A DNA stretch of 64,000 nt from Pseudomonas sp. R4-35-07. GTDB lineage: Bacteria > Pseudomonadota > Gammaproteobacteria > Pseudomonadales > Pseudomonadaceae. The DNA is taken from the NCBI RefSeq assembly GCF_003852235.1, contig NZ_CP027732.1:4774001-4838000 (forward strand), written 5' to 3'. Position 1 is the first letter of the stretch, and each line of letters begins with the position of its first letter. Shown piece by piece: positions 8,858 to 18,964 of the stretch. Below the pieces are notes generated by a model, which saw only the letters and a list, made by a program, of their open reading frames with translations, did not search any database and was not told the origin of the DNA. The position numbers and the translations under genes are program-made.

Positions 8858-8962
8858 ATGATCCCGACTTTTAATAATGACCCGGCGACTTTATTTCGTT
8901 TGCGGCAGAGGCGCTCACGCAGCTTAGATAAACCGAGCCCATTACTGCCGAGTCAACGATTC

Positions 8963-10213
8963 ATGAGCCGCGAAACGATCAGCCAATCGATTTCCATCGT
9001 CCACCCCATCAACCTCAGCCATGGAAAAAACGCTGAGGTCTGGGACACCGCAGGTAAGCGCTATATCGATTTTATCGGTGGCATCGGCGTACTCAACCTC
9101 GGCCATTGTCACCCCACCGTGGTGGACGCGATTCGTGAGCAGGCGACCAGACTCACCCACTACGCGTTCAACGCCGCGCCGCACATGCCCTACATCGATT
9201 TGATGGAGCGCCTGACCGCGTTTATTCCGGTGAGCTATCCAGTCAGCGGCATGCTCACCAACAGCGGCGCTGAGGCCGCGGAAAATGCCTTGAAGATTGT
9301 GCGCGGCGCCACTGGCCGCACGGCGGTGATTGCTTTTGACGGAGCGTTTCATGGGCGCACCCTGGCCACCCTCAACCTCAATGGCAAGGTCGCGCCGTAC
9401 AAGCAAAAAGTCGGCGTACTGCCCGGCCCGGTGTATCACCTGCCCTACCCCAGTGCCGACAACGGCGTCACCTGTGCCGAAGCGCTGAAGGCCATGGACC
9501 GTCTGTTCAGTGTGGAAATCGACGTCAACGATGTAGCCTGTTTCATCATTGAACCGGTACAAGGCGAAGGCGGTTTCCTCGCCCTGGATACCGAATTCGC
9601 CCAGGCCCTGCGCCGTTTTTGTGACGAGAACAACATCCTGTTGATCGCCGACGAAATCCAGTCCGGTTTCGGTCGCACCGGGCAGCGATTCGCCTTCTCG
9701 CGCCTGGGCATTGAACCTGACCTGATCCTGCTCGGCAAAAGCATCGCCGGCGGTGTGCCGCTGGGGGCGGTGGTGGGACGCAAGGCATTGATGGACAACC
9801 TGCCCAAGGGCGGTCTGGGGGGTACCTATTCCGGCAATCCCATCGCCTGCGCCGCCGCGTTGGCAACCCTCGATGTGATGACCGATGAACACCTGCAGGT
9901 ATGGGGCTCCCGGCAGGAGGAGGCGATCGTGCGACGTTACCAAGCGTGGCGCGCACAGCACCTGTCGCCGTATCTGGGCCGCCTCACCGGTGTCGGCGCG
10001 ATGCGCGGCATTGAACTGGCGCATGCCGACGGCACGCCCGCCGCCAAGCAACTGACCCAATTGCTGAGCCTGGCGCGGGCTGCCGGCCTGCTGCTGATGC
10101 CCAGCGGCAAGTCACGGCATATCATCCGCTTGCTGGCACCGCTGACCATCGAGCCGGCCGTGCTGGAGGAAGGCCTGGATAAGCTTGAAGCGTGCCTCAA
10201 GCAGCTGGACTGA
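8963..10213 (+). CDS. Class III PLP aminotransferase (GabT/ornithine-aminotransferase-like)
   Basis: A 416-aa omega-aminotransferase fold enzyme. Visible motifs are TNSGAEAAENALK, GAFHGRTLATL, IIEPVQGEGGF, LIADEIQSGFGRTG and the PLP-lysine region LLGKSIAGGVPLGAVVG. It is close to 4-aminobutyrate and similar aminotransferases, moving an amino group from an omega-amine to 2-oxoglutarate or pyruvate. The frame is open back to an ATG at 8858, right after the cyclase stop. Family alignment places the true N terminus at MSRETISQSISIVHP (8963), although no strong ribosome site precedes it. The exact amine substrate is not decided by the sequence. Confidence 0.85.
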   Translation: MSRETISQSISIVHPINLSHGKNAEVWDTAGKRYIDFIGGIGVLNLGHCHPTVVDAIREQATRLTHYAFNAAPHMPYIDLMERLTAFIPVSYPVSGMLTNSGAEAAENALKIVRGATGRTAVIAFDGAFHGRTLATLNLNGKVAPYKQKVGVLPGPVYHLPYPSADNGVTCAEALKAMDRLFSVEIDVNDVACFIIEPVQGEGGFLALDTEFAQALRRFCDENNILLIADEIQSGFGRTGQRFAFSRLGIEPDLILLGKSIAGGVPLGAVVGRKALMDNLPKGGLGGTYSGNPIACAAALATLDVMTDEHLQVWGSRQEEAIVRRYQAWRAQHLSPYLGRLTGVGAMRGIELAHADGTPAAKQLTQLLSLARAAGLLLMPSGKSRHIIRLLAPLTIEPAVLEEGLDKLEACLKQLD

Positions 10214-10325: not shown

Positions 10326-11042
10326 ATGTCCGATGCGTACACCGCTGAATCCGCCGAAGCCTCCGTCGTCGTCTCGCACGCCAAAGCCGAGTATGAAAAC
10401 GCCATCAATCTTTCACAGCATGTGCCAGCGGCCAAGATCATCAGCGAAATGGTGCTGGACGCGTTTCACACTTCCAAGGAAAGCGACCAGATCCGCGAGT
10501 TGCGCGTGGCCATTCGTCAGGCCCATGACGCCTTCGACGATGACAAAGCCTACGACCTCATGGGCCAGCTCAAGCAATTGAAGGACGCCGAAGCCGCCGA
10601 CAACGCTGCCCTGGAAGACCTGAGCAGCAAGTTCTCCATCAGCCGCCTGCTGTCCAGCTTCAAGGACGACCCCGAATTCCAGGAGCTGGTCTACGGCCTG
10701 GCCCTCAAGGTGCTGAACCAGTCGCACCAGGCCATCAGCAACCCGAGCGCCGGCAAGGGCAAGGCTGCACGCGCCAAGAAGGACGCCGAGGTATTTGTGA
10801 TCAGCAAGGATGGCATCAGCGTCACCCTGCCGCTGCGCACGCCGCGTTCCAAGCTCAATGTGGACCGCGAAGCGCTGGAGTTCCTGGGCCTTACCTTTGT
10901 AGGTGAAGGCAACGAGGCGGAGCTGGAAAGTGACACCTTCGTTGATAACAGCGGCGTGGAGCAGCCGGTCACGCGCAAGAGCATTGTGACCGCACTGCAA
11001 CAGCAAAGCGCTTTTGACGGTTACTCCATCGCCGCCCAGTAA
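10326..11042 (+). CDS. Hypothetical protein, 238 aa
   Basis: I do not recognise this family. The protein has an acidic helical N-terminal half (about 10-145) with heptad-like stretches such as IRELRVAIRQAHDAF. A basic, Ala/Gly/Lys-rich linker follows (SAGKGKAARAKKDAE, about 141-155). The C-terminal domain (about 155-238) is predicted to be a small mixed fold (VFVISKDGISVTLPLR). There is no signal peptide or membrane segment. The gene sits alone, downstream of the aminotransferase and convergent with the minus-strand operon. A nucleic-acid or scaffold role would be a guess. Confidence 0.8.
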   Translation: MSDAYTAESAEASVVVSHAKAEYENAINLSQHVPAAKIISEMVLDAFHTSKESDQIRELRVAIRQAHDAFDDDKAYDLMGQLKQLKDAEAADNAALEDLSSKFSISRLLSSFKDDPEFQELVYGLALKVLNQSHQAISNPSAGKGKAARAKKDAEVFVISKDGISVTLPLRTPRSKLNVDREALEFLGLTFVGEGNEAELESDTFVDNSGVEQPVTRKSIVTALQQQSAFDGYSIAAQ

Positions 11043-11051
11043 GCGCCGAAG

Positions 11052-12170
11052 CTATAGGCTGCGCAGGATGACCAGCGCCTGCTCGACTTGGGCGAGGGTG
11101 ATATGCCGGCCCACCGAGGCACGCACGAAGTGGCTGACGCCCAGGTCCTTGAGCAGCAACGGGGTATGGGCGGCAGTGCCGGCCCAGAGGTTGAGCCCCT
11201 GCGCACGGGCCTGGTCGACAAATGCCTTGGCCGGCACGTTGTGTGGCACGAACGAGACAATCCCGGTCTGTTCGAACTGGTCACACATCAGCGTTAACTG
11301 CGGCAGGCGCCGCAACGCCTGCGCCAGCATCGCATAGGGCTCCGTGCTCTGCCCGCCGCCTACTTGCAGGTATTCCTGCACCGCCGTGTGCAAACCCACC
11401 AGGGCCGAAAGGCTCTTTTCAGCGATCTCCAGCACCCGAGCGCCGGACGCATCCACCTGGTTGACCTGGCCATCGGTGCTGGCGGCGTGCAGGTCTGCAA
11501 AATTCAGCTGCAATTGGCCCAGCAGGCGTGGCGACACATAAGCAATCCCGCTCCCACGGGGCCCGCAGAGAAACTTGCGCCCCGCGCCTGTCAATAAATC
11601 ACAGTGCATATCCCGCACATCCAGCGGCAACTGCCCCAGCGATTGGCACGCATCCACCACATACAGTGCGTTCGAACCCTTGAGCAGCGCACCCAGCGCT
11701 TCCACCGGATTGATCACCCCGCAGCACGACGGCAGGTGCGACACGCTGACAAGAAACACATCGTCGTCCAGATGACGCCGCACCCAATCCAGGTCCAGCG
11801 GGCTGGTGGCCGTGGTTGGGATCACTTCAACGCGAATCTCACGCGAGAGCTTGAGGTAGTTGAAAAAGATCAGGTTCGCGGCGTATTCCGAGTTCGACAC
11901 CCACACCCGCTTACCTCGGGGAAATTGCAGCTTGCCGAGAATGCTGGTCCAGGCCTCGGTGGCGCTGCTGAAAAAGCCAATCTGCGCAGGCTCTGCATTC
12001 AACAGCTTGGCCACCAGGCGGTACAGGTCGACGTTGAGCAACGCCTCGTAGGCCAGCTCGGTTTCATAGCTGCCCATTTGCGCTTCAGTGGCGGTAAAAC
12101 CCTGGATCGCATTCAGCGTGGCCGGTGACATCAGGCCCGCACCGGCGGTGTTCAAATGAATCCTGTTCAT
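11052..12170 (-). CDS. Class V PLP aminotransferase (cysteine desulfurase/epimerase-like)
   Basis: A 372-aa fold-type I PLP enzyme, the last gene of the five-gene operon. GAGRKFLCGPRGSG carries the Schiff-base Lys199. VVDACQSLGQ supplies Asp173 and Gln176, which hold the cofactor ring. VSVSHLPSCCGVINP is the preceding strand. The family includes NifS/SufS desulfurases, kynureninase-like and isopenicillin-N-epimerase-like enzymes, and the visible residues do not choose between a lyase, an epimerase and an aminotransferase. It begins one base after the stop of the MFS gene, so it is co-transcribed. It is probably a tailoring enzyme of the pathway. Confidence 0.85.
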   Translation of the reverse strand: MNRIHLNTAGAGLMSPATLNAIQGFTATEAQMGSYETELAYEALLNVDLYRLVAKLLNAEPAQIGFFSSATEAWTSILGKLQFPRGKRVWVSNSEYAANLIFFNYLKLSREIRVEVIPTTATSPLDLDWVRRHLDDDVFLVSVSHLPSCCGVINPVEALGALLKGSNALYVVDACQSLGQLPLDVRDMHCDLLTGAGRKFLCGPRGSGIAYVSPRLLGQLQLNFADLHAASTDGQVNQVDASGARVLEIAEKSLSALVGLHTAVQEYLQVGGGQSTEPYAMLAQALRRLPQLTLMCDQFEQTGIVSFVPHNVPAKAFVDQARAQGLNLWAGTAAHTPLLLKDLGVSHFVRASVGRHITLAQVEQALVILRSL

Positions 12171-12171
12171 T

Positions 12172-13374
12172 TCATGCTTCCTTGTTCCACAAGACAGCCG
12201 AGCCTTTCATCACGCCTACCGCCACCGCGAACAGCAGCAATATTGTGCCCGCCAGCAGCCACGGCGAAGGCAGCGAGGGCTGTGACACCAGCATGAACGC
12301 CAGCGAAGGCGTGATCATCACGCCGATGTTCACCCCCGCAGAGTAATAGCCGAGGTTGCGGTCCACTGTGTGACGGCTGGAGATACTGCTGACGTAATGG
12401 GTGATGCCGGGAAAGACGATCATCTCGCCCAGGCTCCAGAGCACCGTAGCCACCAGCAACAGCGCGCCGATATGGCTGAAGCCCATCAGGAAGAACCCCA
12501 CGCCAGCGACGAGAAACCCGGCCACCAGCGACCGGCTGCTCGACAGGTGCGACATACGTTGGTTGATCGGCACTTCGAACAGAATCACCAGCAGTGCGTT
12601 GATGAAAAAGATGATCCCGACGTAGTACGCCGGCAACTCGGTGTAATTGATGATGTAGGCCGACAGAAACGTCGGCGGCAGCGCATAGGCCACGTGCACC
12701 GGTAATGCCGCCAGCAGAATCACCAGCAAGCGCGAGCGCTCGTGCACTGCGCTCTCCGGCAAGCCGTTGCCCTTGCTGACGATGGCAGCCCCTTGGACCA
12801 CCGGCACCGCACGCCCGAACCGCAGGCAGGCAACGAAGGCCACCAGGGACAACGCCGCGTTGAGGTAGAACACCGCGTCGGCGTTGCTCAAGAAAATCAG
12901 GCTGCCCAACAGCGGCCCGATCGCCATGCCGATGTTGATCGCCAAACGGTTGCAAGAGAACGCCACTTTGCGCGATTCACTGCTGCTGTGGGTGACCGTT
13001 TCGGAGAACGTCGCCGGCGTGAATGCCTCGTAGCAGGCCCCCCACAGAAACGACAGCACAAACAGCAGCGCCGTGTTATCCACCGACGGAATGATCAGCA
13101 GCAGCAGCGCGTTAAGCAGCAACGAGCCGAGGATCACCCGATTGGCGGAAAACCGCTTGATCACCCCGCCGATGATCAAGTCCACAAACAGTGCACCCGC
13201 GCCATAAACGCCCACCAGCAACCCTGCGGTTGCCGCCGACACGGCGTGCTGATGAATCAGATACGCCGCATAGAAAGGGAACGCCATGGTGCCCATGCGG
13301 AACACCAGGGTGATCAGGAACAGCAACTGCAAGCGAGCATTGAGCCCGCGCAACGCGCGATAAGTGCCTATCAT
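12172..13374 (-). CDS. Major facilitator superfamily transporter
   Basis: A 400-aa polytopic membrane protein with about 12 hydrophobic segments. The first is near FRMGTMAFPFYAAYLI and the next near AATAGLLVGVYGAGALFVDL. The short loop with conserved basic residues after TM2 is typical of the superfamily. The ATG overlaps the stop of the ATP-grasp gene by one base (13374), and the class V aminotransferase follows one base after its stop. Given this setting it most likely exports the operon product and gives self-protection, but uptake of a precursor is possible. Confidence 0.88.
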   Translation of the reverse strand: MIGTYRALRGLNARLQLLFLITLVFRMGTMAFPFYAAYLIHQHAVSAATAGLLVGVYGAGALFVDLIIGGVIKRFSANRVILGSLLLNALLLLIIPSVDNTALLFVLSFLWGACYEAFTPATFSETVTHSSSESRKVAFSCNRLAINIGMAIGPLLGSLIFLSNADAVFYLNAALSLVAFVACLRFGRAVPVVQGAAIVSKGNGLPESAVHERSRLLVILLAALPVHVAYALPPTFLSAYIINYTELPAYYVGIIFFINALLVILFEVPINQRMSHLSSSRSLVAGFLVAGVGFFLMGFSHIGALLLVATVLWSLGEMIVFPGITHYVSSISSRHTVDRNLGYYSAGVNIGVMITPSLAFMLVSQPSLPSPWLLAGTILLLFAVAVGVMKGSAVLWNKEA

Positions 13375-14624
13375 CAGCGAATCACATAGACGTTGTCTTT
13401 GTACTGGCGGATCTGCTCGTAATCCTGGTCGATAGTGCCCTGGCTATCCGACACCAGAAACACCCGCAGCGGGCTGCTGAGCAGGTCCACGGTCTTTTTC
13501 ATCAGCTTGCCGGCCTTGTATTTGACGCTCAGCTTGTGCACCGACGGCAACGCCTCGATCCGGTGAATGGCCGATTCATTGAAGCCGGTGACCTCGCCTT
13601 GCAGCGTGGTGTCGGTGTTGATGACACAAGCCTCCTTGAGCTTGTGGTAGCGCTTGCCGGCGTAGTTGGCCTTGAACGCCTCACCGTCGCAGTACGCCAG
13701 GTAGGTGAGCTGCGCCTGGTTGCCGCCCAGGCTGATGTCATGGAACCTTGGTTCCATGTTGCCGTTCAGGCGAGCACCGACTTCCACCAGCGCGGGGCCG
13801 GCTTCGGTGAGGATCACTTCCGAATGGGCCGGGCCGTTATCGATACCCAGCGCCTTGAGCGCCTTCACGATGTAGTCCACCAGCACGTTGGCCTCGGCGC
13901 TGTCCGGGGCAATCAGCACGTCGCGGTCGTAGATGTTCTTGCCGCCGCTGATTTCACGCTTCACATAGCGCCAGATCCCGCACACGTAAGTCTGCCCATC
14001 CCGGCTGACGGTATCGACGATGTACTCCGGGCCCTTGAGGTAGGACTGGCAGAGAATTTCCGTGTTGGGCAGGCCGAAGATATCCGGGTTGGACACCACC
14101 TCTTCACAGGCGCGCTTGACGTCCTCGAGGTTGTGGCAGATCGAAACCCCGTCGGTGGATGCCGAACTCAGCGGTTTGATTACGCAGGGAAACACCTGAC
14201 CGGCCTCGACCCAGGCCAGCAGCTCGGCGGGGTCCGAGGATTTGATCTGGCGTGCGGTCAACAGGCCTGCGGCGGCGACTTTGTTGATCATTTCAAACTT
14301 GTCGCGGCGAGCGCGTGAGCCTGCACTGCCGTTGGAGGTGGACAGTTGCAACTGTTCACTCAAGTAATCGGCGAATGGCACGCCAGGCTCCTGGCCGGCA
14401 ATGACGGCGACTACGTTGAACTCACGCAAGCGTCGCACTATATCCTCGGCGTTGTCGTTGAGTGCCAGGTTGTGCTCGAACTCAGACAGGTTCGGCCCGA
14501 GCATGCTTGGCATCAGCTCGGGAGTACTCTGTACATGGATCAGGCTGAAACCGGCATCCCGGAAATACTGCGGCAGGAAATTACCGCTCGAGTAGACATC
14601 CACCAATGCGACGTACTGCTTCAT
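13374..14624 (-). CDS. ATP-grasp ligase (amino-acid/dipeptide ligase-like)
   Basis: A 416-aa ATP-grasp enzyme. Nucleotide and metal sites are visible as FPCVIKPLSSASTDGVSI (Lys-containing strand and glycine-rich loop), TEILCQSYLKGPEYIVDTV and SEVILTEAGPALVEVGARLNG (written in parts; the E...E..R/N metal-binding triad). The last matches the signature of L-amino-acid ligases such as BacD and carnosine-synthase-like enzymes, which join a carboxylate to an amine through an acyl phosphate. ATG at 14624 has AAGGA at proper spacing; the frame is open further upstream but without support. As the only bond-forming enzyme of the operon, it is likely the assembly step. Confidence 0.87.
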   Translation of the reverse strand: MKQYVALVDVYSSGNFLPQYFRDAGFSLIHVQSTPELMPSMLGPNLSEFEHNLALNDNAEDIVRRLREFNVVAVIAGQEPGVPFADYLSEQLQLSTSNGSAGSRARRDKFEMINKVAAAGLLTARQIKSSDPAELLAWVEAGQVFPCVIKPLSSASTDGVSICHNLEDVKRACEEVVSNPDIFGLPNTEILCQSYLKGPEYIVDTVSRDGQTYVCGIWRYVKREISGGKNIYDRDVLIAPDSAEANVLVDYIVKALKALGIDNGPAHSEVILTEAGPALVEVGARLNGNMEPRFHDISLGGNQAQLTYLAYCDGEAFKANYAGKRYHKLKEACVINTDTTLQGEVTGFNESAIHRIEALPSVHKLSVKYKAGKLMKKTVDLLSSPLRVFLVSDSQGTIDQDYEQIRQYKDNVYVIR

Positions 14625-14637
14625 AAGAATGTCCTTT

Positions 14638-15609
14638 TCAGTAATGAGTGGCGGTTTCAGAGGCCCGTGGCGAAGCCACGTCATCCAGCGCCAGGAAAAT
14701 GTTCTGCGGGAACTCAGCCACACGGTGCAACAGGTGCAAGTACCAGTTGGTGCCGTAAACCGCCGACACCCGGGCCTTGACCTGGCCCTGGTCTTTTACC
14801 GCCTTGATCAGCTCAGGGCGCACGCCGTGGAGCATCTCCAGCTCACCTCGGTCAGCGATTTGGCTGGTGAGGATTTCTTCAATCAGCAGCGGGTCCTGGG
14901 TGGCGAAAGCAAACTGCCCGCGGCCACCATTGATCCGGTCCAGCAGCCCCAGGTAACGCTCGTTGAGCGCCTCGCCACGGGGCAAAGCAATGGCGGCAGG
15001 CTCAGCATAGACGCCTTTGACCAGGCGCACTTTGCAGCCGGTTTCCAGCACCGCTCCCAGGTCATCCGGGGTTCGGTTCAACTGCGCCTGAAGGGTGATG
15101 CCCACGTTGGGAAAACGCCCGCTCAGGTGCAGGAAGATCTCGAGGATCGAATCCGTCCATTGGGAGCGCTCCATGCTGATGATCACGCCGACATCCTTAT
15201 CGGCTGCATGGGCCAGGATCTTCGAGCAGTTCTCGACTGCCAGCTCGCGGGAAATGATGGTACCGACGTTCGACAAATCGAACCCCAACTGAGGAGGTTC
15301 ACCGAGCTTGGGATGCTGGGCGATCAAGTCGATCAGCTGCAGGTATTCATCGGTTGCCGTGGTCACCTCGGCCAGCGTCGTCGCTTCCTCGCCGACGAAC
15401 TCGACACCGGTGCGATAGCCTTTGGCCAACAGGGCCCCAAGCTTGTCGAGCATCTCCAGGCGATCTTCGGAAATGATGTAGCGAAGCGCCGCAGGTCGCA
15501 GGAAATCACGCAGCGTCTCGCTCTCCAGGAACAAGTCACGGTAGGTCTTGTTCGCCGCCAGTTTCTTCAGGGCCAGGGTTGCCAGCAGGCTGTTATCTGT
15601 CGTGTTCAT
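14638..15609 (-). CDS. Proline-dehydrogenase-like flavoenzyme
   Basis: A 323-aa monofunctional member of the PutA/PRODH TIM-barrel family, which oxidises proline-type substrates to imines with FAD. Family motifs: CKVRLVKGVYAEP (compare RLVKGAYW), FAFATQDPLL, and near the end NWYLHLLHRVAEFPQN. In PutA the last motif is YLxRRLAE, where two adjacent arginines bind the substrate carboxylate. Here the first is histidine, so the substrate may differ from free L-proline. There is no P5C dehydrogenase domain, and the gene is embedded in the biosynthetic-looking operon four bases after the desaturase stop. This argues against simple proline catabolism. Confidence 0.85.
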   Translation of the reverse strand: MNTTDNSLLATLALKKLAANKTYRDLFLESETLRDFLRPAALRYIISEDRLEMLDKLGALLAKGYRTGVEFVGEEATTLAEVTTATDEYLQLIDLIAQHPKLGEPPQLGFDLSNVGTIISRELAVENCSKILAHAADKDVGVIISMERSQWTDSILEIFLHLSGRFPNVGITLQAQLNRTPDDLGAVLETGCKVRLVKGVYAEPAAIALPRGEALNERYLGLLDRINGGRGQFAFATQDPLLIEEILTSQIADRGELEMLHGVRPELIKAVKDQGQVKARVSAVYGTNWYLHLLHRVAEFPQNIFLALDDVASPRASETATHY

Positions 15610-15613
15610 GGCA

Positions 15614-16678
15614 TTAAACCCCGTAGGACTGGTTGAGCATGCGACGTGCGAAACTCGAATCGTCGGTGTGGTTGGCGATCTTGTGGGCGCGGAATTTGGC
15701 CGCGTAACTGAGCAGGGTTTCCTTGTGGCGGCTATGTCGGTCACGGGTAAAAATCCCCGCCCACAGGTTGTCCCAGCGTGCGTACTCGGGGTGCGACATC
15801 AGCAGTTTATGGGCCTTGCGCATGTTCCAGTGGGGAATCGACGGGTGCAGGTGGTGCACAAGGTGGTAGTTATCGTCGTGGCGGCCGAAAAAGAAGTTTT
15901 CCAGCGCGTTGCCTTTACGGTTACGGGTCAGCAGCAGCTTTTCGCTTTCAACGGCGGGCAACGGATAGTGCTCGGCCAGCTCGATGATCCAGCCCACAGC
16001 CACGGCGGCCGTGAACAGCGGCACGAACCAGAACAGCACCAGTTCAACCGCAAGGCCAAACCAGGCAACCACTGCAAAAATCACTGCCCAGTAGGCCCAC
16101 ATCAGCACGCGTTCCTTGCGGATGCGTGCGTCCTGGCCCTGGAGCCGGTCCTTGACGATGTACTTGATGTATTGAAGGGTGCGGTAACCCGATAACGCCA
16201 TCACCACGTTCTTCAGGAAGAACTCGCGCTCGCTTTGCTGGAGGTCGTACAGGCCGCACTTGAGATGGAAATTGTAGTCCGGGTCTTTTTCCGGGTGCCC
16301 CAGGTGCACATGGTGGTTTTTGACGTGCGAGGTGCTGTAGGACTGGTAAAGATGGAAGATCAGGTACCCCGAGAGAAAGGTACCGGCAAACCAGTTGATC
16401 GCCCGGTTTTTCGCCAACAGTTTGTGACTTGACTCGTGCAACACGTTCGCCAGGGCACGTTGAGTGGTGCCGATGAGAAACAGCGAAACGGGATAAAACC
16501 AATAGCTGACGCCCACGGACAGATAAATGGCAAAGGCGATGATTGAATAATCCTTACCCAGTGCGATGGCCCAATGGTAGTTATCTTTCTTGCACAGGTG
16601 CTTGAGCATCCCGAAGGTTTCACGGGAAATACCCCCGGCGTAATCGCCAGCAGGTTCTTTGTTTTTATCGACCAGCAT
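15614..16678 (-). CDS. Membrane di-iron fatty acid desaturase-like enzyme
   Basis: A 354-aa integral-membrane protein with the three histidine clusters of the desaturase/hydroxylase family: HESSH, HVKNHH and HLVHH. These bind the di-iron centre. Hydrophobic pairs flank them (YSIIAFAIYLSVGVSYWFY in the first half, VIFAVVAWFGLAVELVLFWF in the second). The family desaturates or hydroxylates acyl chains, and some members act on amino-acid-derived substrates in natural-product pathways. It is the promoter-proximal gene of the operon. ATG 16678 with GGAG upstream is preferred over the in-frame start at 16702. Confidence 0.9.
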   Translation of the reverse strand: MLVDKNKEPAGDYAGGISRETFGMLKHLCKKDNYHWAIALGKDYSIIAFAIYLSVGVSYWFYPVSLFLIGTTQRALANVLHESSHKLLAKNRAINWFAGTFLSGYLIFHLYQSYSTSHVKNHHVHLGHPEKDPDYNFHLKCGLYDLQQSEREFFLKNVVMALSGYRTLQYIKYIVKDRLQGQDARIRKERVLMWAYWAVIFAVVAWFGLAVELVLFWFVPLFTAAVAVGWIIELAEHYPLPAVESEKLLLTRNRKGNALENFFFGRHDDNYHLVHHLHPSIPHWNMRKAHKLLMSHPEYARWDNLWAGIFTRDRHSRHKETLLSYAAKFRAHKIANHTDDSSFARRMLNQSYGV

Positions 16679-16824
16679 AATCACTCCATAATTAAGCGGC
16701 ACGCTGCAACACGCCTATCGCCTAGAGCGACGATGATTTTTTGGGATGTTGCGGCTCTTGTTTTTTTTGCCTGAGCTAAACTCATTGGCTGCAAAAAAAC
16801 TAAAGCACCGCTTGAAAGTGAACA

Positions 16825-16844
16825 AGCTGCCCTTTTAGACAGGT
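16825..16844 (-). promoter_or_regulatory. lux-box-like element upstream of the desaturase operon
   Basis: On the minus strand these 20 bases read ACCTGTCTAAAAGGGCAGCT, which fits the core CTG-N10-CAG of lux/las boxes. The two halves match at five of ten positions. It lies about 147 bases before the desaturase ATG, in the gap between the LuxR-type gene and the operon. The core is short, so a chance match in 250 bases is possible (a few percent). Confidence 0.4.
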
Positions 16845-16870
16845 AGCGCCAAATCACACGCGCACGCGCA

Positions 16871-16900
16871 CGCCCGCCGGTAATAAATCATCGGCGGGCG
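16871..16900 (-). terminator. GC-rich hairpin after the LuxR-type gene
   Basis: A 9-bp perfect stem (CGCCCGCCG at 16871-16879 with its complement at 16892-16900) has a 12-base AT-rich loop, 28 bases past the regulator stop. It lacks a T-run, so it is a weak or factor-assisted terminator candidate. Confidence 0.45.
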
Positions 16901-16928
16901 TGGCAATGGAAAAAGAAGTACCGGCGAA

Positions 16929-17642
16929 TCAGGCCTGTTCGCGGATATAGCCCAGCTGCAAGGCTTTGCGAATGGCGGACTTGCCGTTGGGCACATTCAG
17001 CTTGCTGAAGATATTCTTCATATGGAACTTGACCGTACGCGGGCTCATTGAGACCAGAAGCGCTATTTCGTTATAGGTCTTGCCCTGACTGGTCCAGGAC
17101 AACACCTGCGTTTCCCGAGGTGTCAGCACGGTTTCCGGTACAACCGGCGGGAGCACGGTGGTGCCTTCCAACGCCTCGTCGTAAACCGAGACCAGCAGCA
17201 TCTGCAGTTCACTTTTGTTGGCCAGCACTCGCTCGCGAAACTGTTGATGTTCGCCAAAGCTGCACAGGTTGAGGATGGAATAAAAGCCCCGATTACCATG
17301 CACGATAAAACTGGCGCCCTCGCCGACGGGGGCACAGGGCCCAGGCACCGGGACCGCGTCTGCAGCGGGCGCAAGGATGTTTTCATCGCTCCAGAAAAAC
17401 GGCTTTATGCGGCGTTTGGACAAGGACAGCAATTGACCGCGTTGGTAAAAGTCATCTGCAGCGTCACCACGGTCCAGCGCGTCGGGGTAGTTAGTGATGA
17501 TTTCCGCTTCATCCAGCGTCGGCCCACACTGATAGACCTCGAAATGCCCGAGGCCGCGTCGGCTCAGCTCAACATCGAGCAATTGGCGCACATCGGCGGG
17601 CTGCATGAGCGTATTGTTATTGGCTTGACCATCGCTTCGCAT
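16929..17642 (-). CDS. LuxR-type quorum-sensing-like regulator (solo)
   Basis: A 237-aa protein. The C-terminal LuxR/GerE helix-turn-helix (about 170-232) is clear: LTPRETQVLSWTSQGKTYNE, then SPRTVKFHMKNIFSKL. The N-terminal part looks like the autoinducer-binding fold: TNYPDAL is retained, but the conserved Asp-Pro pair that contacts N-acyl-homoserine lactones appears as Gly-Gln (RGQLLSLSKRRIKPFFW). No luxI-like synthase is nearby. It is therefore a solo regulator that probably senses something other than a standard AHL, and it most likely controls the adjoining operon. ATG 17642 with AGGGA upstream is preferred to the TTG at 17702. Confidence 0.87.
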   Translation of the reverse strand: MRSDGQANNNTLMQPADVRQLLDVELSRRGLGHFEVYQCGPTLDEAEIITNYPDALDRGDAADDFYQRGQLLSLSKRRIKPFFWSDENILAPAADAVPVPGPCAPVGEGASFIVHGNRGFYSILNLCSFGEHQQFRERVLANKSELQMLLVSVYDEALEGTTVLPPVVPETVLTPRETQVLSWTSQGKTYNEIALLVSMSPRTVKFHMKNIFSKLNVPNGKSAIRKALQLGYIREQA

Positions 17643-17727
17643 GACTATCGTCCCTGATGAGTGACAACGGGTGAGGTTAGCGACCTGACCGGAGTGCTTC
17701 AATCCGTAAGCTTCCGATCAAAATCGA

Positions 17728-17740
17728 CCTACACCGTAGG
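17728..17740. promoter_or_regulatory. Palindrome CCTAC-N3-GTAGG before the LuxR-type gene
   Basis: A 13-bp perfect palindrome with a 3-base centre lies about 86 bases before the regulator start, in a 197-bp gap. It could be an operator for autoregulation or for another regulator. The evidence is the symmetry alone. Confidence 0.3.
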
Positions 17741-17839
17741 AAAATTCCTCTATATCAGGGAAAGAATGAAACATGCCTACCAACCTTGTCCAGTGCTTCC
17801 AGCGCTGAGCCGACCGCGAGCAGGCGCAGCAGTGTCTGG

Positions 17840-18925
17840 TCAGGCTATCTGTGTCGCAAACACTTCGCGAAACCGCTGCATTTGCTGCTTATTGCCTACC
17901 GTCACCCGCACCCACTGCGGCCAATCCTTCCAGACGCGCCCTACCAGCACATTCTGTGCAGCCAGGCGCGCAACCACCTGCTCTGCCGGCTGCTTCACGT
18001 CGATCATGAAGCAATTGCTCTGGGAAGCCGTGCAGCTATAGCCCCGGCCCTTCAGCCAAGCGATGGTCTCCTCACGCACATCGGCATTGAGCGCCTTGCG
18101 CTGGCCCAGTAGCTTGACGTCTTCCAGGCTGGCATGGGCACCCAGCAGGCTGGCACCGGCCGGGACATTGTCGCCGCCAAACACCGCGAGGCGCTCCAGC
18201 AGCGAGGGATGGCCGATCGCCAAACCGAGGCGCGCACCGGCCATGCCGTAAATTTTCGAGAAGGTGCGCAGTACCAGCAGATCGTCATGGTCCTTGATCC
18301 AACTCACGCAACTGGGGGCGTCGCAGAAGTCGATATAGGCTTCGTCCACCACCAGCACGCTGCCTTTGGGTTTGTTCTCCAGCGCCTGGCGGATAGCCTC
18401 GGTCGGCGTCAGGGTGCCGGTCGGGTTATTGGGGTTGCACAGGTACAGCATGCCGGCCTGGGGATCAGCCGCGAGCATCGCCGGTACATCATGGGCATGC
18501 TGGGCATCGAGGCTGACTTCGTGTACCGGCGCCTTGTTTGATTCGGCCGCCTGGCGCGGAACTTCATAGGACGGCGCGGCCATCACCAGGCCACGGGTTG
18601 GGTGGGTGAATGCCAATACGGCATAGCGCAACGCGGCCATGGAGCCGGCAAACACCGCCACGTTGTCTTCGCTGATGCCTTGCTGTTGGGCAAACAGCGC
18701 AGCCAGCGCGTACATGTGCGGGTAGGGATAACGCCCGGCCGCCGCAATACCACGCGCCATCGCCTCAAGCGCCGCTTTCGACGGCCCATAAGGGCTTTCG
18801 TTGTAGTTGAGCAATACATCGTCAGAGGCCGCCGGCGCAGGGCTTGCGACTGCCCAATCGAGATGCCCGAGCACAGGCAAGGCCGCGCCCAGGGCGAGAA
18901 GGGATCGACGACTGACGCTGACCAT
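17840..18925 (-). CDS. HisC-like PLP aminotransferase with Tat signal
   Basis: A 361-aa class I/II aminotransferase related to histidinol-phosphate aminotransferases: LLNYNESPYGPS, YLCNPNNPTGTL, VVDEAYIDF, RTFSKIYGMAGARLG (Schiff-base Lys) and WVRVTVG (carboxylate-binding Arg). Unusually, the N terminus is a twin-arginine signal (VSRRSLLALGAALPVLG) ending in Ala-rich cleavage sequence, so the folded holo-enzyme should go to the periplasm. Start 18925 has AAGGAG; the frame is open to 19066 without a ribosome site. It shares strand with the LuxR gene and the operon downstream, so it may belong to the same pathway, but the 197-bp gap allows separate control. Confidence 0.87.
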   Translation of the reverse strand: MVSVSRRSLLALGAALPVLGHLDWAVASPAPAASDDVLLNYNESPYGPSKAALEAMARGIAAAGRYPYPHMYALAALFAQQQGISEDNVAVFAGSMAALRYAVLAFTHPTRGLVMAAPSYEVPRQAAESNKAPVHEVSLDAQHAHDVPAMLAADPQAGMLYLCNPNNPTGTLTPTEAIRQALENKPKGSVLVVDEAYIDFCDAPSCVSWIKDHDDLLVLRTFSKIYGMAGARLGLAIGHPSLLERLAVFGGDNVPAGASLLGAHASLEDVKLLGQRKALNADVREETIAWLKGRGYSCTASQSNCFMIDVKQPAEQVVARLAAQNVLVGRVWKDWPQWVRVTVGNKQQMQRFREVFATQIA

Positions 18926-18964
18926 GGTGACTACTCCTTGTAGGCGGACGGGGGATTCGTACGG

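What the first reader, a model, noticed from the sequence alone, without database searches (positions are those of the whole stretch)
11052..18925. LuxR-linked five-gene operon, a possible undescribed small-molecule pathway
Seen directly: five minus-strand genes with gaps of 4, 13, -1 and 1 bases encode a di-iron desaturase, a proline-dehydrogenase-like flavoenzyme, an ATP-grasp ligase, an MFS transporter and a class V PLP enzyme. A LuxR-type regulator sits directly upstream, and further up a Tat-signal aminotransferase on the same strand. Each enzyme family is known, but I do not know this combination. Inference: it builds an amino-acid- or dipeptide-like metabolite (ligation, imine formation, desaturation or hydroxylation, PLP chemistry), exports it, and is under density or ligand control.
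Basis: partly seen in the sequence, partly recalled or inferred. Interest (0 to 1): 0.78.

Follow-up and report, generated by a model that had tools for sequence, protein, structure and literature searches.

The report
Mobile Pseudomonas amino-acid tailoring gene island
A compact, transferable block of six Pseudomonas genes appears to make, cap and export an unusual modified amino acid under the control of its own regulator; the same enzyme set recurs in distant bacteria, but its product is unknown.

Summary
Five tightly packed minus-strand genes (gaps 4, 13, -1, 1) plus a LuxR-type regulator form one unit; two relatives lacking it have the flanking genes 53 and 300 bp apart, so it is an insertion of about 6.8 kb. 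The upstream Tat aminotransferase is not part of it: it is the pyoverdine transaminase PtaA. The same six genes occur in six other named Pseudomonas genomes. In a 298-genome sample the ProDH-like and class V PLP genes occur in the identical 13 genomes (4 like the window, 9 a divergent version with an added aldolase). A three-gene core recurs on Streptomyces and roseobacter plasmids. Three enzyme labels change: the 'desaturase' is of the GntB/RtxC amino-acid hydroxylase/desaturase family; the 'proline dehydrogenase' keeps the fold but lost proline-binding residues; the class V enzyme lacks the cysteine-desulfurase cysteine. Best reading (inference): the core converts a common amino acid into an oxidised non-proteinogenic one, the ATP-grasp ligase caps it as a dipeptide, the MFS pump exports it, under LuxR control through a conserved lux-like box. 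The paper searches run showed no description of this set; MIBiG could not be queried. Product and substrate are unknown.

The parts
15614..16678 (-). membrane di-iron enzyme of the GntB/RtxC amino-acid hydroxylase/desaturase family (gene 1)
   Evidence: Pfam FA_desaturase; NCBIfam GntB 330 bits, below its 380 cut-off; His motifs conserved in the 7 rows of A2
14638..15609 (-). ProDH-like flavoenzyme with altered substrate pocket (gene 2)
   Evidence: Pfam Pro_dh; TM 0.78 to T. thermophilus ProDH; D111, S145, H292, H295 in 14 of 14 rows of A1
13374..14624 (-). ATP-grasp ligase, PRK07206 subfamily (gene 3)
   Evidence: NF005543 376 bits, cut-off 302; DdaF 239 bits, cut-off 840; PDB 'L-amino acid ligase' 30vh E 5.1e-49
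12172..13374 (-). MFS transporter, taken as exporter (gene 4)
   Evidence: Pfam MFS_1 127 bits
11052..12170 (-). class V PLP enzyme, SufS/EgtE-like fold without the desulfurase cysteine (gene 5)
   Evidence: Aminotran_5 144 bits; K199 conserved, Cys column A/S/H in 13 of 13; Foldseek top hits SufS (model pLDDT 76)
16929..17642 (-). LuxR-type regulator that travels with the five genes
   Evidence: GerE and Autoind_bind; upstream of the five genes in 6 of 6 other named type I loci
16825..16844 (-). conserved lux-like box ACCTGTCTAAAAGGGCAGCT (fits NNCT-N12-AGNN), 146 bp before the first ATG
   Evidence: identical in 7 of 7 type I loci; one site in the own genome at up to 3 mismatches, the reversed control pattern also one
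16760..16800 (-). leader inverted repeat GTTTTTTTGC...GCAAAAAAAC
   Evidence: alignments A3/A4; predicted in the consensus fold
16703..16755 (-). leader hairpin with compensatory changes, upstream of the first start codon
   Evidence: 10 pairs, 3 with changes on both sides, 95% of cells paired, 6 of the 7 loci
16869..16902 (-). inverted repeat after the LuxR gene, probable terminator
   Evidence: 16-nt arms, 88% complementary
17840..18928 (-). ptaA, pyoverdine transaminase: neighbour, not part of the unit
   Evidence: NF051461 680 bits, cut-off 500; present in two island-free relatives

Best explanation
The unit 11052-17642 is a horizontally mobile biosynthetic island for an exported, dipeptide-capped non-proteinogenic amino acid, probably an antimetabolite. 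Proposed order (inference): the GntB/RtxC-type di-iron enzyme hydroxylates or desaturates the side chain of a free amino acid; the ProDH-like flavoenzyme, whose proline-carboxylate pocket has been remodelled, oxidises that intermediate, most likely at a C-N bond to an imine; the Cys-less class V PLP enzyme carries out amination, elimination or cyclisation to give the final residue; the ATP-grasp ligase joins it to a second amino acid; the MFS pump exports the dipeptide. The linked LuxR-type regulator, probably sensing something other than an AHL, activates the operon at a lux-like box, with a structured leader RNA downstream of it. Shown here: gene content, families, conserved linkage, insertion, residue changes, conserved box. 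Inferred: every chemical step, its order, the ligand, the direction of regulation and the biological role.
For: Operon layout. Flanking genes close together in two island-free relatives: 53 bp between the terB-like and ptaA stops in L112, 300 bp in L111. Same six genes in L003-L008. ProDH-like and PLP hits in the identical 13 of 298 genomes. Divergent version with all five families plus an aldolase in 9 of 9 loci. Core di-iron/ProDH/PLP trio next to AzlC/AzlD-type genes on a Pseudosulfitobacter plasmid, and with ATP-grasp and MFS genes on a Streptomyces plasmid. Relatives of the di-iron enzyme sit in rhizobitoxine-type gene sets and beside DMT transporters. Residue changes in the ProDH-like and PLP proteins. 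Lux-like box 7 of 7.
Against: No metabolite or enzyme activity is known. The window's di-iron enzyme is below the curated GntB cut-off (330 versus 380), and so are the Actinophytocola, Streptomyces and Pseudosulfitobacter ones (287-290). The roseobacter version has no ATP-grasp gene annotated in the stretch seen, so capping is not universal. Standalone Bacilli ProDH-like proteins share the Asp, Ser and His-Arg changes, so these are not specific to this pathway. The box is only 10 of 20 self-complementary, NNCT-N12-AGNN is loose, and the genome search with its control is uninformative. The Actinophytocola contig ends 94 bases after its ProDH gene, so its PLP gene cannot be checked there. Base composition of the five genes does not stand out (about 53% G+C at the LuxR/leader end, 57-63% over the rest).
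Confidence: 0.6

Rival explanations
1. The substrate is L-arginine: gamma-hydroxylation as by GntB, then oxidation and PLP chemistry give a cyclic guanidine residue (enduracididine-like or aromatised), which is ligated to a second amino acid. This is a specific version of the best explanation.
For: GntB is the best NCBIfam match of the window enzyme (330 bits), and the two type II enzymes scanned, of nine, exceed its cut-off (427 and 450). GntB makes gamma-hydroxy-L-arginine, which a PLP enzyme, GntC, cyclises (PMC10367076, passages read). The Lys-to-Asp change in the ProDH-like pocket would suit a cationic group (inference).
Against: The window enzyme is below the cut-off, and an RtxC-type enzyme, which acts on another substrate (recalled), is about as close (35%) as two GntB-type enzymes (36-38%). 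No GntC-type cyclase is in the unit. The GntG model is not specific: it passes its cut-off in 4 of 14 control genomes, so the type II aldolase is weak evidence.
Confidence: 0.25
2. A proline-derived product: the ProDH-like enzyme oxidises proline or a hydroxylated proline to a pyrroline that is then ligated.
For: Pro_dh fold and family.
Against: The pocket Lys, Asp, Tyr and the first Arg of the Arg pair of T. thermophilus ProDH are Asp, Ser, His and His in 14 of 14 relatives; the ProDh_Thermus equivalog score is 131 against a cut-off of 500.
Confidence: 0.1
3. The operon makes a signal or cue that its own LuxR-type protein senses, as in an autoinduction loop, and antibiosis is not its role.
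For: The LuxR gene travels with the genes, lacks AHL-contact residues in the alignment to SdiA and has a conserved box before the operon.
Against: No homologue of this LuxR (E<=1e-15) lies in the nine type II stretches, and no LuxR is annotated in the plasmid stretches, so the chemistry does not need it.
Confidence: 0.2
4. A catabolic or detoxification operon: uptake and breakdown of an amino-acid derivative.
For: Class V PLP enzymes and ProDH are often catabolic (general knowledge).
Against: An ATP-consuming ligase is at odds with catabolism; homologous sets lie with AMP-binding and P450 genes or AzlC/AzlD-type genes.
Confidence: 0.08

Closest known systems
Guanitoxin pathway (GntB, GntC, GntG) of cyanobacteria
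   Same: Membrane di-iron enzyme matching the same NCBIfam model; free amino-acid tailoring with PLP enzymes
   Different: No GntC-type cyclase in the unit; window enzyme below the GntB cut-off; ProDH-like enzyme and ATP-grasp ligase present here
Rhizobitoxine cluster (RtxC-type desaturase)
   Same: Related di-iron enzyme (35% to the Robbsia protein) in gene sets that I recognise from memory as rhizobitoxine clusters, with LysE-type transporter genes
   Different: The window unit has none of the transsulfuration-type PLP, amidotransferase or homoserine genes; it has ProDH-like, class V PLP and ATP-grasp genes
PRK07206 ATP-grasp ligases and dapdiamide synthase DdaF
   Same: Same ligase subfamily (PRK07206 376 bits, cut-off 302)
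   Different: DdaF score 239 against cut-off 840: not a dapdiamide synthase; the type II ligase L029 just misses PRK07206 (295)
Proline dehydrogenase
   Same: Fold (TM 0.78 to 2ekg)
   Different: Substrate-pocket residues replaced in 14 of 14 relatives
Pseudomonas amino-acid antimetabolites (FVG, furanomycin, AMB)
   Same: Same general kind: secreted non-proteinogenic amino acids of pseudomonads (PMC8064604, PMC3662646, PMC4357302)
   Different: The AMB cluster (start of abstract seen) has NRPSs and 2OG oxygenases; the FVG paper's text holds none of the terms aminotransferase, desaturase, ATP-grasp, dehydrogenase or LuxR; the furanomycin genes were not known in the 2013 paper (passages)

Membership tests
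GntB L-arginine gamma-hydroxylase (NF041365) | whole-protein score above the curated 380 bits | tested here: not met
   window 330 bits; L009, L053, L055 287-290; the type II proteins L029 and L033 do pass (427, 450)
GntB L-arginine gamma-hydroxylase (NF041365) | hydroxylates L-arginine at C-gamma | not testable with these tools
   needs an enzyme assay
Guanitoxin pathway | adjacent GntC-type cyclodehydratase and GntG aldolase | tested here: not met
   none among the genes of the unit; the genome has a GntG-family aldolase elsewhere, but that model is generic
Proline dehydrogenase | Pro_dh TIM-barrel fold | tested here: met
Proline dehydrogenase | proline-carboxylate-binding Lys and Arg-Arg pair, and pocket Asp/Tyr (residue roles recalled) | tested here: not met
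   Lys to D111, Asp to S145, Tyr to H292, first Arg to H295 in 14 of 14; second Arg (R296) kept
Cysteine desulfurase (SufS/IscS) | catalytic cysteine in the C-terminal loop | tested here: not met
   A, S or H at that column in 13 of 13; some pairwise alignments shift the Cys by two places, to a nearly invariant Thr
EgtE ergothioneine lyase (TIGR04343) | score above 400 bits | tested here: not met
   116 bits
PRK07206 ATP-grasp subfamily | score above 302 bits | tested here: met
   376 bits
Dapdiamide A synthase DdaF | score above 840 bits | tested here: not met
   239 bits
LuxR-type AHL receptor | Autoind_bind plus GerE domains | tested here: met
   30 and 62 bits, both above cut-off
LuxR-type AHL receptor | AHL-contact Trp/Asp-Pro residues (recalled) | tested here: not met
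   alignment to SdiA 4y13: Trp to Leu, Asp-Pro to Gly-Gln; the region is weakly aligned
LuxR/LuxI pair | synthase gene adjacent | tested here: not met
   the one PF00765 match in the genome is about 1.75 Mb away
Any MIBiG cluster | gene-for-gene match | not testable with these tools
   MIBiG is not on hand; the listings of ten paper searches showed no match

The most novel reading that the evidence does not exclude
The three-gene core (GntB/RtxC-type di-iron enzyme, remodelled ProDH-like flavoenzyme, Cys-less class V PLP enzyme) is an undescribed portable route to a new oxidised, perhaps cyclic-guanidine, amino acid. It would have been assembled at least twice with different di-iron enzymes and spread through Pseudomonas, actinomycetes and marine roseobacters, with the ProDH fold recruited away from proline.
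Probability: 0.4. Interest if true: 0.75.

Novelty: new variant of a known kind. Interest (0 to 1): 0.52.

Why it matters
A small NRPS-free cassette of this kind is easy to miss, because its genes carry primary-metabolism or lipid names (fatty acid desaturase, proline dehydrogenase, class V aminotransferase). If it makes a new amino-acid antimetabolite, it gives a compact, testable pathway with a ready search signature (the ProDH-like gene with the Asp/Ser/His/His-Arg pocket next to the Cys-less PLP gene) and a new function for the proline dehydrogenase fold. The linked LuxR protein would be a candidate receptor for a non-AHL ligand with a candidate operator.

Tried and rejected
Lipid desaturase: rejected, because the best curated match is an amino-acid hydroxylase and relatives sit in amino-acid gene sets. 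Tat aminotransferase as part of the pathway: rejected, it is PtaA and is present without the island. Neighbouring genes 8858-10213 (2-aminoadipate transaminase family) and 10326-11042: rejected, since both are found in island-free relatives. Type II aldolase as proof of a guanitoxin-like route: weakened, because the GntG model passes its cut-off in 4 of 14 control genomes. Known RNA family in the leader: no Rfam match at gathering score in the window, and two sub-threshold matches in 16600-17900. Other members of the LuxR regulon: the box has no second site in the genome at up to 3 mismatches, and the reversed control pattern also has one site, so this says little. Anti-phage defence: PADLOC (six proteins given) returns desulfurase models (SspA, DndA) for the PLP enzyme and a CARF model for the LuxR HTH, nothing for the rest. 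Wider distribution: 1 of 368 other genomes of the class matched at 1e-30, weakly (113 bits). In the order of Actinophytocola, 48 of 397 matched at 1e-50, but apart from Actinophytocola itself (484 bits) the best scores 225; three of those loci were looked at and held no partner gene in the stretch fetched. Three plasmid loci recognised (from the C-1027 strain and gene names; recalled) as enediyne-type clusters carry a ProDH homologue without the partners. Six weak ProDH hits (E 4.6e-17 to 8.9e-4) were dropped before counting 13: three were looked at and have no partner gene (L038-L040), three lie in ORFs of 1107-1326 aa. Of the 12 other relatives with the 10326-11042 gene ten were fetched: two show ptaA next to it without the island, eight show neither ptaA nor the island in the stretch. 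Literature: the listings showed no description of this gene set; most listed papers were not opened and most subscription papers are not held. Passages seen: PMC10367076, PMC11177257, PMC3662646; term search without hits: PMC8064604; the others by listing and start of abstract only.
Full report
Observation. The window lies at 4774001-4838000 of a single 5.84-Mb contig, a Pseudomonas genome by its closest relatives. The LuxR-type gene is upstream (16929-17642). The Tat-signal aminotransferase (17840-18928) is PtaA, the pyoverdine transaminase (680 bits, cut-off 500).

The unit is an insertion. Of 12 other relatives with the downstream flanking gene (10326-11042), ten were fetched. Two have ptaA next to it without the island: L112 with 53 bp and L111 with 300 bp between the two stops. 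The other eight show neither ptaA nor the island in the stretch. In the window the same interval is 6797 bases and holds the LuxR gene and the five genes. Of the six other named carriers, L005-L008 have ptaA and the flanking gene around the island, and L003 and L004 have neither in the stretch held. So the six genes form the unit and ptaA does not belong to it. Base composition does not mark the five genes as foreign.

Conservation. One scan of named genomes found six further Pseudomonas loci (P. baetica, P. paracarnis, P. kitaguniensis and three Pseudomonas sp.) with the LuxR gene and all five genes in the same order, at 82-96% protein identity, plus one Actinophytocola locus. In a sample of 298 Pseudomonas genomes the ProDH-like protein matched 19, of which 13 at E<=1e-70; the other six (E 4.6e-17 to 8.9e-4) were dropped. 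The class V PLP protein matched at E<=1e-60 in 13 of 298, the identical 13. The di-iron enzyme matched at E<=1e-25 in 18 of 298: those 13 and 5 others. Nine are a divergent type II in the order ProDH-aldolase-ATP-grasp-MFS-PLP-di-iron in 9 of 9, at 46-48% (ProDH-like), 28-32% (ATP-grasp), 24-26% (MFS, 8 of 9 at the cut-off used), 41-45% (PLP) and 36-40% (di-iron) identity to the window proteins. One type II PLP gene (L031) is interrupted next to a transposase-like ORF.

Beyond Pseudomonas. The trio di-iron enzyme, ProDH-like, class V PLP lies in that order on a plasmid of Pseudosulfitobacter pseudonitzschiae directly after AzlC/AzlD-family genes, on a Roseovarius plasmid where an IS3-family transposase gene lies between azlD and a shortened di-iron gene, and on a Streptomyces plasmid with MFS, ATP-grasp, peptidase, AMP-binding, P450 and RidA genes. 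Identities to the window for the Streptomyces and Pseudosulfitobacter proteins are 49-50% (di-iron), 38-43% (ProDH-like) and 36-41% (PLP), and 47% for the Streptomyces ATP-grasp. A tree of 31 di-iron proteins puts type I, the actinomycete and the roseobacter proteins in one clade (100/99) and type II in another, with one lone Pseudomonas protein (100/99); some long branches make deep placement unsure. The same kinds of enzyme thus come together with two different di-iron lineages, which argues for a functional pathway.

The enzymes. (1) The di-iron protein's best curated match is GntB, the guanitoxin L-arginine gamma-hydroxylase: 330 bits, below the 380 cut-off. The Actinophytocola, Streptomyces and Pseudosulfitobacter proteins score 287-290, and the two type II proteins scanned 427 and 450, above it. 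Relatives on plasmids lie in gene sets with transsulfuration-type PLP and amidotransferase genes, which I recognise from memory as rhizobitoxine clusters, beside DMT transporters, or between NRPS genes. (2) The ProDH-like protein folds like T. thermophilus ProDH (TM 0.78; model pLDDT 84). Against that sequence the Lys, Asp, Tyr and first Arg that line the proline site (roles recalled; D370 and Y540 of PutA also appear as mutants in PDB titles) are Asp111, Ser145, His292 and His295 in 14 of 14 relatives, while Arg296 and Glu299 are kept; the Streptomyces and Pseudosulfitobacter proteins show the same. Standalone Bacilli relatives share the Asp, Ser and His-Arg but keep the Tyr, so part of the change is older or wider than this pathway. 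(3) The PLP protein keeps the Schiff-base Lys199 and the His/Asp/Gln of the fold, but has Ala, Ser or His where SufS has its catalytic Cys, in 13 of 13. (4) The ATP-grasp protein passes PRK07206 (376 over 302) and fails DdaF (239 under 840); the type II ligase L029 just misses PRK07206 (295).

Control region. The LuxR-to-operon interval holds a probable terminator for the LuxR gene. Then follows a 20-base box ACCTGTCTAAAAGGGCAGCT, identical in 7 of 7 type I loci and inside a longer invariant stretch, 146 bases before the first ATG. It fits the loose lux-type pattern NNCT-N12-AGNN (recalled) but is only 10 of 20 self-complementary. It has one site in the genome at up to 3 mismatches; so has the reversed control pattern. 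Downstream lie an inverted repeat GTTTTTTTGC...GCAAAAAAAC and a 10-pair hairpin with 3 compensatory pairs over 6 of the 7 loci (L005 was left out): 95% of cells paired and covariation score each reached by 2 of 500 shuffles, but the number of further pair types by 421 of 500. Rfam has no match at gathering score. The sample is small; the hairpin is likely but its role is open. The LuxR protein's alignment to SdiA lacks the AHL-contact Trp and Asp-Pro (weakly aligned region). The genome's one LuxI-type match is about 1.75 Mb away.

Mechanism. Shown: content, linkage, insertion, residue changes, conserved box. Inferred: a free amino acid is oxidised on its side chain (di-iron), oxidised again by the flavoenzyme, remodelled by the PLP enzyme, joined to a second amino acid by the ATP-grasp ligase, and exported. 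The AzlC/AzlD-linked roseobacter version suggests that the trio alone yields an exportable amino acid and that ligation is an added cap. Arginine is the leading single substrate guess (0.25) because of the GntB relationship and because an Asp in place of the carboxylate-binding Lys would suit a cationic group. GntB makes gamma-hydroxy-L-arginine, cyclised by the PLP enzyme GntC, in the guanitoxin route (PMC10367076, passages). An RtxC-type enzyme is about as close, so this is open. The type II aldolase L029 passes the GntG model (304 over 230), but that model is generic.

Known or new. The listings of ten paper searches showed no description of this gene set; most listed papers were not opened, and MIBiG was not available. 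I file it as a new variant of a known kind: an NRPS-free, ATP-grasp-capped amino-acid pathway. A product identification would decide whether it deserves more.

Noticed in passing
window 16703-16755 (-): Leader hairpin with three compensatory base pairs over six loci and no Rfam match at gathering score; possible regulatory RNA of the operon.
   Followed up: partly
L057, L054, L060: A ProDH-like homologue (37% for L057 and 40% for L054) sits without the partner genes in what look like enediyne-type clusters, including that of Streptomyces globisporus C-1027.
   Followed up: no
L058 2914-3876, L059 9932-10894: Bacilli plasmids carry standalone ProDH-like proteins with the same Asp, Ser and His-Arg pocket changes (Tyr kept), suggesting that the remodelled subfamily is wider than this pathway.
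   Followed up: no
L063 8971-10849, L066 6974-8862, L138/L140/L141/L143: GntB-like enzyme followed by a second gene (DMT transporter in the two annotated records; a similar-looking ORF in the four Pseudomonas loci): possible two-gene make-and-export units.
   Followed up: partly
L142: A di-iron enzyme grouped with the type II clade lies next to a large ORF that may be an NRPS-type gene (not tested).
   Followed up: no
window 8858-10213 (+): 2-aminoadipate transaminase family gene (753 bits, cut-off 650) next to the island, conserved in relatives without it.
   Followed up: yes
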